A stretch of DNA of 64,000 bases from contig NZ_BMKD01000004.1 of NCBI RefSeq assembly GCF_014643835.1, forward strand, positions 248,001-312,000, given 5' to 3'. The translations under genes and the position numbers were made by a program. Position 1 is the first letter of the stretch. Every line of letters begins with the position of its first letter. Below the pieces are notes generated by a model. That model was not told where the DNA came from, ran no database searches, and was given only the letters and a program-made list of their open reading frames with translations. This DNA comes from Mucilaginibacter rubeus (GTDB taxonomy: Bacteria > Bacteroidota > Bacteroidia > Sphingobacteriales > Sphingobacteriaceae). Positions 48,235 through 51,771 of the stretch are shown here, in pieces.

Positions 48235-48283
48235 TTCTCCCTTACCTGAAACTCGTTCACCGACATTTTATGCCGTTTCACCT
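48235..48283. promoter_or_regulatory. phased direct-repeat array 1
   Basis: TTCTCCC (48235), TTCACCG (48256) and TTCACCT (48277) start exactly 21 bp apart, two helical turns. A weaker TTCAACA follows at 48294. CTAACGGCA is at 48306-48314 and a near -7 box CATCTTTG at 48315-48322. Arrays 2 and 3 use the same word. This fits a protein that binds tandem sites on one DNA face. Confidence 0.6.
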
Positions 48284-48339
48284 AAAATAACTGTTCAACA
48301 ATGAGCTAACGGCACATCTTTGCGGCAAATAACATTATC

Positions 48340-48435
48340 ATGAAAACATTCTACAATCCACTTATAGCTGTGATGATCTCCCTGCAGGAGCATACGGTAA
48401 CCGTTATCCAGGCGTTGGCTAACCTGATCAGTTAA
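48340..48435 (+). CDS. small hydrophobic peptide 1 (31 residues)
   Basis: An ATG frame of 31 codons plus TAA, starting MKTFYNPLIAV and ending ALANLIS. From residue 7 on it aligns without gaps to the 32-residue peptide at 49221: identical or similar at most positions, with a shared central E-H pair (E17, H18) and a shared LI near each end. It lies 57 bases after array 1 and 25 bases before an intrinsic terminator, so it has its own transcription unit. It could be one membrane helix or an amphipathic exported peptide. Function unknown. Confidence 0.6.
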   Translation: MKTFYNPLIAVMISLQEHTVTVIQALANLIS

Positions 48436-48459
48436 TATATTCATCTGCCTATGAAAAAC

Positions 48460-48493
48460 AAAGCCGCGTTGCGATCTTGCAAAGCGGCTTTTT
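48460..48493 (+). terminator. terminator of peptide 1 gene
   Basis: AAAGCCGC (48460-48467) pairs with GCGGCTTT (48484-48491), followed by T residues. It closes a unit that holds only the 31-codon frame, supporting that frame as a gene. Confidence 0.8.
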
Positions 48494-48521
48494 AATATTG
48501 AAAATTTATTTGAAACCTCAA

Positions 48522-48998
48522 TTAGTCGACTATTTTAATTTTGACGTTTGTTCCATTGGGTAGATCTTTTATTTGCTCACCAATAATGCCGGTTAATTCG
48601 AAATGACCTTTAATATCAACAGGCTTAAGATTGTCAATTGTGTATTCTCCTCCTAAAACCGGCATTTTCTTATAGCTGTAAACCTGGTGATCACCTAAAT
48701 AAATACAGGCATCTTCAAGTTCCTTTAACAATTGAGGCATGAACCAGTTATCCACTTTTTCATCGTCATTTAAAAAACTGTAAAACTCTTGTTTATTATC
48801 AGCAACTTTCGATAAATCACACATATCCGTTGCAAGCCAGTAAATACAATCATCATATCCTATAAAGAACAGATCGCCGAGCTTTGATATCATTAAAATT
48901 TCCTTAAAATCTTTTATCAACCATAACCAGGTATCCATTAAGCCGGCAGTATTTATACCGTTTAAATTTATTACAAGCTCATCTAAATAGTAATCCAT
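48522..48998 (-). CDS. DUF1851/Tdi1-like immunity-type protein
   Basis: A 158-residue protein. KLGDLFFIGYDDCIYWLATD (about 49-68), the segment KKMPVLGGEYTIDNLKPVDI and the ending EQIKDLPNGTNVKIKI resemble DUF1851 proteins, some of which are immunity proteins against secreted (ADP-ribosyl)transferase toxins. No toxin gene is adjacent. The ATG at 48998 is preferred over a TTG at 49028, since the promoter overlaps that TTG. It lies between the two peptide genes and is divergent from array 2. Family call moderate; immunity role is inference. Confidence 0.6.
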   Translation of the reverse strand: MDYYLDELVINLNGINTAGLMDTWLWLIKDFKEILMISKLGDLFFIGYDDCIYWLATDMCDLSKVADNKQEFYSFLNDDEKVDNWFMPQLLKELEDACIYLGDHQVYSYKKMPVLGGEYTIDNLKPVDIKGHFELTGIIGEQIKDLPNGTNVKIKIVD

Positions 48999-49025
48999 AT
49001 AAGTTAGATTGTTAACACCTACTCT

Positions 49026-49033
49026 CAAAGTTA
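49026..49033 (-). promoter_or_regulatory. -7 box of the DUF1851 gene
   Basis: On the minus strand TAACTTTG matches TAnnTTTG perfectly, 27 bases before the ATG at 48998. Array 2 begins 40 bases further upstream, so one array could serve both directions. Confidence 0.55.
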
Positions 49034-49072
49034 ATATCCCTTCTGAGGTTTTTGCTTTTTACTCTCCAAAGT

Positions 49073-49152
49073 TTTACCGACGATATCACTTTTTTACCGG
49101 TATTTCTCCGATGTTTTACTGCCGTTCACCGATAACCGCACTTGCTTCGCCT
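49073..49152. promoter_or_regulatory. phased direct-repeat array 2
   Basis: Six TTYRCCG-like heptamers start at 49073 (TTTACCG), 49093 (TTTACCG), 49104 (TTCTCCG), 49115 (TTTACTG), 49125 (TTCACCG) and 49146 (TTCGCCT). Steps are 20, 11, 11, 10 and 21 bp, so all sit on one side of the helix. CTAACGGCA follows at 49160-49168 as in the peptide 1 promoter. Confidence 0.7.
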
Positions 49153-49220
49153 AATAAACCTAACGGCAGGGTGCCTTTTGTGTGCAATTTTGGATCACTA
49201 AACAACAACAAATAAATGCC

Positions 49221-49319
49221 ATGAAAACTTTACTTGCAATTCAATTGATCCATTTAGTTATGAAAGCCGCGGAACATGCCGTTGTTATCGTTCACTCTAT
49301 CGGTCATTTAATAAAATAA
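49221..49319 (+). CDS. small hydrophobic peptide 2 (32 residues)
   Basis: An ATG frame of 32 codons plus TAA, starting MKTLLAIQLIHLV and ending HSIGHLIK. It is the paralogue of peptide 1, with the same E-H pair (E18, H19). It carries four histidines (11, 19, 25, 29) along a hydrophobic segment and lysines at 2, 15 and 32. It lies 69 bases after array 2. The shared length, N-terminal MKT and gap-free C-terminal alignment argue that both frames are translated. No homologous family is known to me. Confidence 0.6.
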   Translation: MKTLLAIQLIHLVMKAAEHAVVIVHSIGHLIK

Positions 49320-49403: not shown

Positions 49404-49487
49404 ATGAAAAAAGGAGACGAAGTAACCTGGAAATGGGGAAAATCACAAGCTGAAGGCCATATCATTAAAAATACGAAAGGCCGGTAA
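49404..49487 (+). pseudogene. truncated DUF2945 (Tudor-like) gene
   Basis: This 27-codon frame reads KKGDEVTWKWGKSQAEGHI and then stops after NTKGR. It matches the first third of DUF2945 proteins, which are normally about 65-75 residues. No continuation is found in other frames downstream, so it looks like a deletion remnant. Confidence 0.6.
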
Positions 49488-49500
49488 GCAAAACTATAAA

Positions 49501-49590
49501 AAGTGCAAAAGTGAGATAAGGCCCCTAACCCCGATAGGCGAACTTTTGCGGAGAGTATTATAAGCCTGGATGATGATCATCCGGGCTTTT
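49501..49590 (+). ncRNA. candidate structured RNA with terminator
   Basis: GCAAAAGT (49505-49512) pairs perfectly with ACTTTTGC (49542-49549) around an inner CCTA/TAGG hairpin. A terminator follows: AAGCCTGGAT (49562-49571) pairs with ATCCGGGCTT (49579-49588, one G-T pair) and runs into T. No frame in it looks coding. It may be a small RNA or the 3' end of the peptide 2 transcript. No known RNA family was recognised. Confidence 0.4.
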
Positions 49591-49647
49591 CATTTTAAGA
49601 CATCCGGGGAGCCAGCGCAGGGTTTTCGCAGATGATAAATAATATCA

Positions 49648-49697
49648 ATTACCCATCGCAAAATTCACTTTCACCGTAAAAATTGCGCACTTCGCCG
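49648..49697. promoter_or_regulatory. phased direct-repeat array 3
   Basis: ATTACCC (49648), TTCACCG (49670) and TTCGCCG (49691) start 22 and 21 bp apart, the same word and phase as arrays 1 and 2. It ends 43 bases before the ABC ATPase ATG. Confidence 0.6.
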
Positions 49698-49740
49698 AAA
49701 AACTCATGGTTATTTCATGAATGTGATGCATTTTTACCCT

Positions 49741-50505
49741 ATGACAAAACAACCTATCATCACTGTAAACAACCTGGTAAAAAACTATGGCGATTTTGCA
49801 GCCGTTAAAGGCATTAGTTTTGAAGTTTATGAAGGCGAGATCTTCGGCCTGCTTGGCCCCAACGGTGCCGGTAAAACAACTACTCTCGAAATCATTGAAA
49901 CCCTTCGTGATAAAACGTCGGGCAGCATCATTGTTGATGGCTTCGACATTGAAACCGACGCTGATAGCATCAAAAAACGGATAGGCGTACAGTTACAAGC
50001 CGCCGGTTATTACCCCAACCTCAACCTGTCGGAGTTGATCGTATTGTTTTCGGGCCTGTACGGTATCGACAAAACACCGATGGAGATGCTGGAAAAAGTT
50101 GCCCTTACCGATAAAGCAAAGGCTAAATATAAAGACCTTTCCGGGGGGCAAAAACAGCGTTTTTCTATCGCCACTACATTAATCAATAACCCAAGGATCA
50201 TATTTCTGGATGAGCCCACAACCGGCCTCGACCCGCAGGCCCGCCGTAACCTTTGGGATCTGATCCGCGAAATCCGCGACCAGGGAACCACCGTGGTGAT
50301 CACTACCCACTATATGGATGAAGCCGAAGTACTATGCGACCGTGTTGCCTTTGTCGACGGCGGCTACATCATTGGCATTGATACCCCCGACCATTTTATC
50401 GACGAGCTTGTAGCCACAGGCTTTGAACGCAAAAAGCAGGTAAAACTGGCCAATCTGGAGGATGTATTCATTAATTTAACCGGCAAGGAATGGCGGGAAG
50501 GATAG
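49741..50505 (+). CDS. ABC exporter ATP-binding protein
   Basis: A 254-residue ABC-2-type ATPase. Walker A is GPNGAGKTTT, the signature is LSGGQKQR, Walker B is IIFLDEPTTGLD and the switch His is in VVITTHYMDEAE. It works with the permease at 50647. ATG 49741 is preferred; an ATG at 49717 adds eight residues. The shared promoter array links it to the two peptide genes upstream, so the peptides or their targets may be its substrate. Confidence 0.93.
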   Translation: MTKQPIITVNNLVKNYGDFAAVKGISFEVYEGEIFGLLGPNGAGKTTTLEIIETLRDKTSGSIIVDGFDIETDADSIKKRIGVQLQAAGYYPNLNLSELIVLFSGLYGIDKTPMEMLEKVALTDKAKAKYKDLSGGQKQRFSIATTLINNPRIIFLDEPTTGLDPQARRNLWDLIREIRDQGTTVVITTHYMDEAEVLCDRVAFVDGGYIIGIDTPDHFIDELVATGFERKKQVKLANLEDVFINLTGKEWREG

Positions 50506-50646: not shown

Positions 50647-51771
50647 ATGAACAATAAATACAGCAATACAAAAGCAACCCTGGCCATTGCCAAAGCCAGT
50701 TTCCGGTCGATATTACGCAGCCCTTCGGCGGTGGTGTTTACACTGGCTTTCCCATTAATATTTATCATTGTTTTTGCCAATATTGGGGGGGGCGGTATGT
50801 CGATAGATGTGGGCGTAGCCAAAGGCAGCGATACATCCGCCAATAACCCGGTTTACACTGCGCTTAAAAAAAACAAGATCATGCACCTTATCCATGATCA
50901 AACAGCTGATGAAATGAGCAAAAACCTGGCAAAAGGTAACCTTGATGCAATACTTGATCTTAAACCTTTTGCTCCACCAGCGTCAATGACCGTTCATGTA
51001 CAGTACAGCCAGGCATCGGGCGATAAAGGAAGTGTATTAAAATCAGCCCTGAACAACATTTTTTATCGTATTCAGTCGGAAGAATTGAAACGCATTCAGT
51101 CGTACACCACAGTTAAAGTCCCCAACCTGATCGACCTTAAAGAAGAAACCATAAGCGGCCGCCCATATAAATACATCGATTTTATTTTACCCGGACAGTT
51201 GGGTTTTTCGTTGCTAAGCAGTGGTGTTTTTGGTACAGCTTTTGTATTTCTGAGCTTACGGTTAACATTGGTTATCAAACGCTTTTTTGCAACCCCGGTT
51301 AAACGTTACAGCATTGTTTTGGGCGAGGCTATTGCGAGGCTGGCCTTTTCCCTGTTAGGTTCGTTATTTATTATACTGGTCGGGCATTACATGTTTGGTT
51401 TTACGCTGATCCACGGTGTAACAACTGTATTAAATATGCTGGTACTTTCGGCCATCGGGTTGATCATTTTCATGGGATTCGGCTTTACTGTATCTGGCAT
51501 CGCCAAAAACGAAAGTTCGGTGCCACCGCTTTCCAATATTATCACGCTGCCGCAGTTCCTGCTTTCGGGTACTTTTTTTTCAATCACCGCCTTCCCCAAC
51601 TGGCTGCAATATATCAGCAAGGTGTTACCGCTAACCCATTTAAACGATGCTATGCGTAAAGTGGCTTTTGAAGGCGCTGGCTTAGGTGACGTTACACACC
51701 AATTACTGATTCTTTTTGCCTGGTTTATCGGAATTTATGCGGTAGCGGTAAAAACGTTTAAGTGGGAATAG
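50647..51771 (+). CDS. ABC-2 type permease
   Basis: A 374-residue permease with one N-terminal membrane helix, an external domain of about 150 residues (VGVAKGSDTS to RPYKYIDFILPGQ), then five helices (LSSGVFGTAFVFLSL through FAWFIGIYAVAVK). ABC-2 permeases of this shape export drugs, lipids or peptides. It follows the ATPase by 141 bases with a small repeat in between. Confidence 0.88.
   Translation: MNNKYSNTKATLAIAKASFRSILRSPSAVVFTLAFPLIFIIVFANIGGGGMSIDVGVAKGSDTSANNPVYTALKKNKIMHLIHDQTADEMSKNLAKGNLDAILDLKPFAPPASMTVHVQYSQASGDKGSVLKSALNNIFYRIQSEELKRIQSYTTVKVPNLIDLKEETISGRPYKYIDFILPGQLGFSLLSSGVFGTAFVFLSLRLTLVIKRFFATPVKRYSIVLGEAIARLAFSLLGSLFIILVGHYMFGFTLIHGVTTVLNMLVLSAIGLIIFMGFGFTVSGIAKNESSVPPLSNIITLPQFLLSGTFFSITAFPNWLQYISKVLPLTHLNDAMRKVAFEGAGLGDVTHQLLILFAWFIGIYAVAVKTFKWE

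What the first reader, a model, noticed from the sequence alone, without database searches (positions are those of the whole stretch)
48340..49319. Two paralogous 31/32-residue hydrophobic peptide genes
Frames at 48340-48435 and 49221-49319 are too short for normal gene calling. Both start MKT; their last 25 residues align without a gap and share L-I, E-H, V and L-I at fixed positions, with conservative changes at most others (V/I, L/I, A/G, A/S). Peptide 1 is framed by its own promoter array and an intrinsic terminator. Two independent frames of equal size and related sequence behind related promoters are hard to explain by chance.
Basis: partly seen in the sequence, partly recalled or inferred. 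Interest (0 to 1): 0.8.

Follow-up and report, generated by a model that had tools for sequence, protein, structure and literature searches.

The report
Conserved stress-promoter micropeptides in Mucilaginibacter
Two overlooked genes encode hydrophobic peptides of only 31 and 32 amino acids; relatives occur in most species of the soil bacterium genus Mucilaginibacter that we could search, typically a fixed distance behind the same repeat-built promoter, so they are probably real membrane peptides switched on by one regulator, not chance reading frames.

Summary
Both frames exist as stated. By hand tally 112 of 149 Mucilaginibacter genomes carry a peptide of this kind. They are under purifying selection (dN/dS 0.20 for P2, 0.15 for P1). 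A promoter module precedes them: TTYACCG-N14-TTYRCCTAA (21-bp direct repeat), 33-34 nt, TTTG, about 21 nt, ATG. Of 124 distinct module copies, 95 have a 27-36-aa ORF at the expected spot, against 3.0% of random positions. The window holds three modules, before P1, P2 and the ABC-2 ATPase gene; shuffles expect none. In relatives the module also precedes PspC and, in selected loci of other genera, Pmp3 and DUF4342 genes, which suggests an envelope-stress regulon. The geometry fits LytTR-type activators, but no regulator was identified. P1/P2 paralogy is plausible but weak by sequence. The exporter link is frequent (81 of 90 copies) but not obligatory. Best reading: activator-controlled small membrane-active peptides; no named family matches.

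The parts
48256..48285 (+). Direct-repeat module of the P1 promoter (half-sites at 48256 and 48277, 21 bp apart)
48319..48322 (+). TTTG, -7-like element of P1, 33 nt after the module
   Evidence: sequence; spacing rule
48340..48435 (+). P1, 31-aa peptide gene (MKTFYNPLIAVMISLQEHTVTVIQALANLIS)
48460..48491 (+). Intrinsic-terminator-like hairpin of P1
   Evidence: pair I10
49073..49154 (+). Array of five half-sites of the P2 promoter (49073, 49093, 49104, 49125, 49146); the strict module is 49125-49154
49189..49192 (+). TTTG, -7-like element of P2, 34 nt after the module
   Evidence: sequence; spacing rule
49221..49319 (+). P2, 32-aa peptide gene (MKTLLAIQLIHLVMKAAEHAVVIVHSIGHLIK)
49557..49593 (+). 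Inverted repeat with T-rich sequence, a possible terminator between P2 and the ABC genes
   Evidence: pair I1
49670..49699 (+). Direct-repeat module before the ABC-2 ATPase gene
49741..50505 (+). ABC-2 ATP-binding subunit (PF00005; best NCBIfam model drrA, below its cut-off), recurrent neighbour
50647..51771 (+). ABC-2 permease (PF12698/PF01061), recurrent neighbour

Best explanation
P1 and P2 are translated micropeptide genes, members of an undescribed set of about 27-34-residue hydrophobic or amphipathic, probably helical, peptides of Mucilaginibacter. They are switched on by an activator, most likely of the LytTR type, that binds 21-bp direct repeats a fixed distance upstream of a Bacteroidota-type -7 element. 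The same activator serves envelope-stress genes (PspC, Pmp3, DUF4342 and, in the window's clade, the neighbouring ABC-2 pump). The peptide then inserts into or lies on the inner membrane and helps the cell to withstand envelope stress. Shown: genes, selection, promoter architecture, fixed spacing, same module before PspC in relatives. Inferred: LytTR identity, stress induction, helix, membrane action, one regulon across genera.
For: Module plus short ORF in 95 of 124 distinct module copies against 3.0% of 20,000 random positions (one of the 95, L145, is polar and probably chance); TTTG 33 or 34 nt after the module in 92 of 94 counted; in 16 of 17 loci that the strict pattern had missed, a variant module stands before the peptide (read by eye); mean pairwise identity 0.73 module, 0.51 leader, 0.64 ORF, 0.21 after the stop against 0.18 shuffled, in 31 divergent P2 loci; dN/dS 0.20 (P2), 0.15 (P1), 0.29 (MTTLLT group); in six species the module precedes PspC, with a LiaF-like gene next to it in the neighbourhood scanned, G023, and its homologue in G414; in loci picked from other genera of the family it precedes Pmp3 and DUF4342 genes; 21-bp repeats upstream of the promoter as published for LytTR regulators, and ACCGGAAATCA-type repeats in Bacteroides (passages of PMC6193735); P2 helical moment above shuffles, p 0.029, P1 0.05, 58 of 88 peptides at p<=0.05.
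Against: No LytTR gene with the module near its start was found (30 loci fetched of 44 matches in three genomes, 28 read in the right frame, about 1 kb upstream each; one loose match about 1 kb away in L295), so the regulator is unknown. Outside the genus the strict pattern is less than twofold above its reversed control (56 against 31 hits by hand count), and the 16 loci read there were picked by eye; 15 looked promoter-like. Amphipathicity is not shared by all: the MTTLLT and MTTSLT peptides look like plain transmembrane helices and several P1 peptides are marginal. No expression data.
Confidence: 0.45

Rival explanations
1. The peptides are exported by the neighbouring ABC-2 transporter and act outside the cell, as a signal or as a membrane-active peptide against other bacteria, with the transporter as exporter and self-protection.
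For: The ATPase gene follows on the same strand in 81 of 90 distinct P2-type copies; the ATPase promoter carries the module in the window's clade, 17 of 102 distinct upstream regions; the ATPase is nearest to the DrrA drug-resistance model, below its cut-off; short amphipathic peptides, LytTR control and a dedicated ABC exporter occur together in Gram-positive systems (recalled; one search gave search listings and abstract starts only).
Against: Two peptide genomes (G267, G139) lack the ATPase at E<=1e-90 and others carry the peptide away from it; 13 of 20 ATPase loci from module-negative genomes have no recognisable peptide within about 1.0-1.5 kb upstream; 0 of 33 ATPase loci outside the genus have module and peptide. 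Purifying selection does not suggest diversifying signal types.
Confidence: 0.2
2. The peptides are self-acting membrane toxins, of the kind of small hydrophobic type I toxins or stress-induced depolarising peptides.
For: Size, hydrophobicity, helical moment and possible tandem duplication fit.
Against: No conserved sequence 3' of the stop where an antisense RNA is often encoded (0.21 against 0.18 shuffled); no Rfam match in the window stretch; one match per genome in the profile search. An antisense promoter inside the ORF was not tested.
Confidence: 0.12
3. The transcript works as an RNA or as a leader and the reading frame is incidental.
For: The leader is conserved (0.51); seven module copies precede only 6-11-codon ORFs.
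Against: dN/dS 0.15-0.29, third-position variation 0.45 against 0.22 and 0.10, stops in frame +1 of 49 of 49 P2 sequences; distance from module to ATPase gene varies from 251 to 2319 nt; no Rfam match.
Confidence: 0.04

Closest known systems
Stress-associated small membrane proteins of Escherichia coli (YohP 27 aa, YkgR 33 aa)
   Same: Length, one hydrophobic stretch, link to stress (abstract of PMC7549839)
   Different: No match of P1 or P2 in Pfam or NCBIfam, none of the P2 profile in the PDB; other phylum; direct-repeat promoter; partly amphipathic, His-rich set; stress induction untested
LytTR-type direct-repeat promoters (S. mutans LRS; LRS-like operons of Bacteroides)
   Same: Direct repeats one 21-bp (Bacteroides: 22-bp) period apart just upstream of the promoter, ACCGGAA-type core in Bacteroides (passages of PMC6193735)
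   Different: Regulator not identified here; half-site TTYACCG/TTYRCCTAA; targets are micropeptides; the repeat lies about 10 nt closer to the TTTG than in Bacteroides
PspC / LiaF envelope-stress modules
   Same: Same promoter module precedes PspC in six related species, beside a LiaF-like gene in G023 and G414
   Different: P1 and P2 have no Pfam match, so no PspC or LiaF similarity
ABC-exported amphipathic peptides under LytTR control in Gram-positives (phenol-soluble modulin type; recalled)
   Same: Short amphipathic peptide, neighbouring ABC-2 transporter, direct-repeat promoter
   Different: Transporter not obligatory; secretion and lytic action untested; not compared by sequence

Membership tests
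LytTR-regulated promoter | Direct repeats with 21-bp period upstream of the core promoter | tested here: met
   48256/48277, 49104/49125/49146, 49670/49691; 33-34 nt to TTTG in 92 of 94
LytTR-regulated promoter | Half-site agrees with the published LytTR consensus | tested here: inconclusive
   Compared by eye with Bacteroides repeats; partial agreement (ACCGGAA)
LytTR-regulated promoter | A LytTR regulator that binds it, often autoregulated | tested here: inconclusive
   0 of 28 LytTR loci read had the module near the start; binding not testable
Stress-associated small membrane proteins | Under 50 aa with a hydrophobic stretch | tested here: met
   27-36 aa, mean Eisenberg hydrophobicity 0.31-0.76 for 87 of 88 peptides
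Stress-associated small membrane proteins | Induced by stress and found in the membrane | not testable with these tools
   Needs experiment; only the shared promoter with PspC, Pmp3 and DUF4342 genes points there
ABC-exported amphipathic peptides (phenol-soluble modulin type) | Amphipathic helix | tested here: inconclusive
   58 of 88 peptides at p<=0.05; MTTSLT group not
ABC-exported amphipathic peptides (phenol-soluble modulin type) | Dedicated, co-inherited ABC exporter | tested here: not met
   ATPase missing in 2 of 14 peptide or module genomes tested; no recognisable peptide beside 13 of 20 ATPases of module-negative genomes; it is beside the peptide in 81 of 90 copies
Type I toxin-antitoxin | Conserved antisense RNA at the locus | tested here: inconclusive
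   No conservation 3' of the stop; promoters inside the ORF not tested
Known Pfam, NCBIfam, PHROG or PDB family | Match to a curated profile or chain | tested here: not met
   Pfam 0 for P1 and P2, NCBIfam 0, PDB 0 (P2 profile only), PHROGs only E 0.13 over 14 residues of P2

The most novel reading that the evidence does not exclude
The peptides are secreted messengers of a Bacteroidota cell-to-cell or self-sensing circuit: a LytTR-type activator drives peptide and ABC-2 exporter from matching promoters, and the peptide acts back on the membrane-sensing arm of the same circuit. A peptide-based LytTR circuit would be unexpected in Gram-negative Bacteroidota.
Probability: 0.1. Interest if true: 0.85.

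Novelty: new variant of a known kind. Interest (0 to 1): 0.55.

Why it matters
It gives a genus-wide set of under-35-residue genes, without a match in the Pfam, NCBIfam and PDB searches made here, that can be called from a rigid promoter rule rather than from the ORF. It exposes a compact regulon with envelope-stress character whose regulator is unknown. It makes the function of such micropeptides directly testable in soil bacteria.

Tried and rejected
Rejected as proof of paralogy: the P2-family profile gives P1 3.1 bits, and 504 of 2000 shuffles of P1 score higher. Family profiles align end to end, but only with probability 18.7%; the MTTLLT group, by contrast, is clearly related to P2 (95.8%, E 6.8e-9). 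Rejected as real hits: L015 and L018, the three hits outside the genus (E 0.02-0.03), and nine intragenic-looking or unclear module copies of the 29 without a peptide. Rejected: the idea that exporter and peptide are one obligate unit. Led nowhere: search for the regulator through LytTR genes with the module in front; Rfam; PHROGs; paper searches on Mucilaginibacter or Bacteroidota peptides and LytTR: no report of this family among the rows listed (12 of 12; 10 of 10; 10 of 524; 10 of 40; 0; 8 of 66); 7 of 10 searches used, the seventh being.

Rows dropped: L015 and L018 were left out; loci L233-L277 (more distant ATPases) were not examined, and L208 had only 225 nt upstream; pairs with saturated or near-zero synonymous change were left out of dN/dS (460 of 1176 pairs used for P2, 19 of 21 for P1, 32 of 45 for MTTLLT); one search counts only copies with at least 230 nt of following sequence; one of the 95 was too short for the TTTG count. 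A first dN/dS run stopped with an error and was repeated with a length check. An hmmsearch inside one search gave no scores and was rerun. In one search, L279 was read in a wrong frame and L301 gave no ORF. L157 (G174) was not recognised by the regular expression; it stays in the tally on its profile hit alone (E 0.005). In the tally script G382 was listed under the strict module by mistake; the recount moves it: 92 strict and 20 others, total unchanged at 112.

Full report
The two frames are present at the stated coordinates: P1, 48340-48435, 31 aa, and P2, 49221-49319, 32 aa. Neither matches Pfam or NCBIfam. The neighbours are an AraC-type regulator and a siderophore-interacting protein upstream, a Tdi1_C-domain gene on the minus strand between P1 and P2, and an ABC-2 ATPase and permease downstream.

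P2 is conserved. tblastn over 60 genomes (G001, the nearest held, plus relatives) gave 19 with E<=1, down to 8e-14; two of these (L015, L018) look like chance. A profile of 12 P2 relatives searched over 400 genomes of the order gave 65 at E<=0.05, 62 in the window's genus and three outside at E 0.02-0.03. The genus is Mucilaginibacter: named records with 93% and 90% identical ATPases are Mucilaginibacter sp. RYN_305 and UR6-11, the latter with the contig length of handle G020.

A shared promoter module was the key. The strict pattern TTYACCG-N14-TTYRCCTAA (21-bp repeat) hits 102 of 149 genus genomes, with 1-3 matches in each genome hit; the reversed control pattern has five hits in all 149. 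In the window the slightly wider TTYACCG-N14-TTYRCCKAA hits three times, before P1, P2 and the ATPase gene, with none expected. P2 has further half-sites at 49073, 49093 and 49104.

What follows the module: of 124 distinct copies in the Mucilaginibacter loci held, 95 have an ATG-started ORF of 27-36 aa 80-99 nt after the module start, 75 of them exactly 32 aa. Random positions in the same loci have one in 3.0% of 20,000 trials. One of the 95 (L145) is polar and probably chance. The 29 others are six PspC genes, seven 6-11-codon ORFs, four 29-30-aa peptides with a longer leader, three peptides of 38-52 aa and nine that look intragenic or unclear. TTTG lies 33 nt (78) or 34 nt (14) after the module in 92 of 94 counted. 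The association does not rest on the pattern alone: of 17 loci found by the peptide profile or by the ATPase and missed by the strict pattern, 16 printed a peptide of this kind, each with a variant of the module in front of it (read by eye). By hand tally 112 of 149 genomes carry a peptide, 92 with the strict module and 20 others (recounted).

Coding evidence: dN/dS is 0.20 for 49 P2 sequences (460 of 1176 pairs), 0.15 for seven P1 sequences and 0.29 for ten MTTLLT sequences. In P2 the codon positions vary by 0.22, 0.10 and 0.45, and frame +1 has stops in 49 of 49 (frame +2 in 15 of 49). In 31 divergent P2 loci mean pairwise identity is 0.73 in the module (partly by selection), 0.51 in the leader, 0.64 in the ORF and 0.21 (shuffled 0.18) in the 150 nt after the stop. 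The conserved unit is therefore promoter, leader and ORF.

P1 and P2: P1 is found upstream of P2 in the window and in eight further species (G001, G014, G018, G032, G209, G360, G392, G446), and a diverged relative, MKILSAPIISLIVYLQEHSPLFTQLVANLFT, stands behind a TTCACCG-type element about 240 nt upstream of P2 in G023. L-Q-E-H and N-L near the end are invariant in the eight P1 sequences aligned. P1 and P2 align end to end, but the profile comparison gives probability 18.7% and P 0.0013, and the P2 profile does not prefer P1 over its shuffles, although ungapped shuffling of the tail gave 1e-5. I take tandem duplication and divergence as likely, not shown.

Properties: P2 has a helical moment of 0.45 (p 0.029 against shuffles) and P1 0.37 (p 0.05); 58 of 88 distinct peptides reach p<=0.05. 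The MTTLLT and MTTSLT groups are more hydrophobic and look like transmembrane helices.

The ABC link: of 90 distinct P2-type copies with the strict module, 81 have the ATPase gene downstream on the same strand in the sequence held, 251-2319 nt from the module (median 377). The ATPase gene has its own module in 17 of 102 distinct upstream regions, mostly the window's clade. But of 23 genomes without a strict module, 20 have the ATPase at E<=1e-90; 7 of these show a peptide upstream and 13 show none that I recognise. Of 14 genomes with peptide or module tested, 12 have the ATPase and 2 (G267, G139) do not. Among ATPase loci not named Mucilaginibacter, 0 of 33 have the module and peptide upstream. 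I infer that the transporter is an old neighbour that the peptide gene joined.

The regulon: in six species the module precedes PspC (PF04024 in G023), with a LiaF-like gene next to it in G023 and a homologue of that gene in G414. In other genera the evidence is selective: the strict pattern hits 56 times there against 31 for the reversed control (hand count). I read 16 of those hits, picked by eye; 15 have a TTTG and a gene start at promoter distance, with recurrent targets: DUF4342 (five loci), Pmp3 (two), an MGWF/MGLF protein (three), TonB-type barrels (three) and lumazine-binding-like proteins (two) (one member of each type was scanned by Pfam, and both lumazine-binding-like ones). This suggests, but does not prove, an envelope-stress regulon. 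PMC6193735 (passages read) reports direct repeats with mostly 12-bp spacers for LytTR systems and, for Bacteroides, TCCGGTATTCA-11 bp-ACCGGAAATCA upstream of a TATCTTTG promoter, which resembles the ACCGGAAGTTT repeats found in relatives here. PMC11237479 (passages read) describes LytTR with LiaF-TM and Toastrack operons in Firmicutes. No LytTR gene with the module near its start was found, so the regulator stays open.

Verdict: real, conserved, co-regulated micropeptide genes; function most likely at the inner membrane in the envelope stress response. I found no report of this family in the rows listed.

Noticed in passing
48522-49028 (-): Gene with a T6SS immunity protein Tdi1 C-terminal domain (PF08906) between P1 and P2; among the 18 neighbourhoods clustered it appears only in the window and G001, so it may be a late insertion.
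   Followed up: partly
49404-49487 (+): 27-codon ORF matching the start of Hva1_TUDOR (PF11160, below cut-off) just after P2; in six relatives read the ORF at this place is 68-70 codons, so the window copy is shortened.
   Followed up: partly
L027, L075, L081, L092, L096, L110, L134, about 85-87 nt after the module: In the G023 group of species a module copy away from P2 precedes an ORF of only 6-11 codons (such as MKKIAYIK), perhaps a decayed peptide gene or an RNA.
   Followed up: no
L095, L138, L102; L315, L318, L141: Further peptide types behind the module: 38-52-aa peptides starting MIAKILIL, MATKLLIA or MIVKLLIA, and 27-28-aa peptides such as MKTLLISFIIYYIERAEILLHVFRELFN.
   Followed up: partly
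L187, L188, L193: Module before a 176-180-aa MGWF/MGLF protein without a Pfam match (only L188 scanned) in another genus of the family.
   Followed up: no
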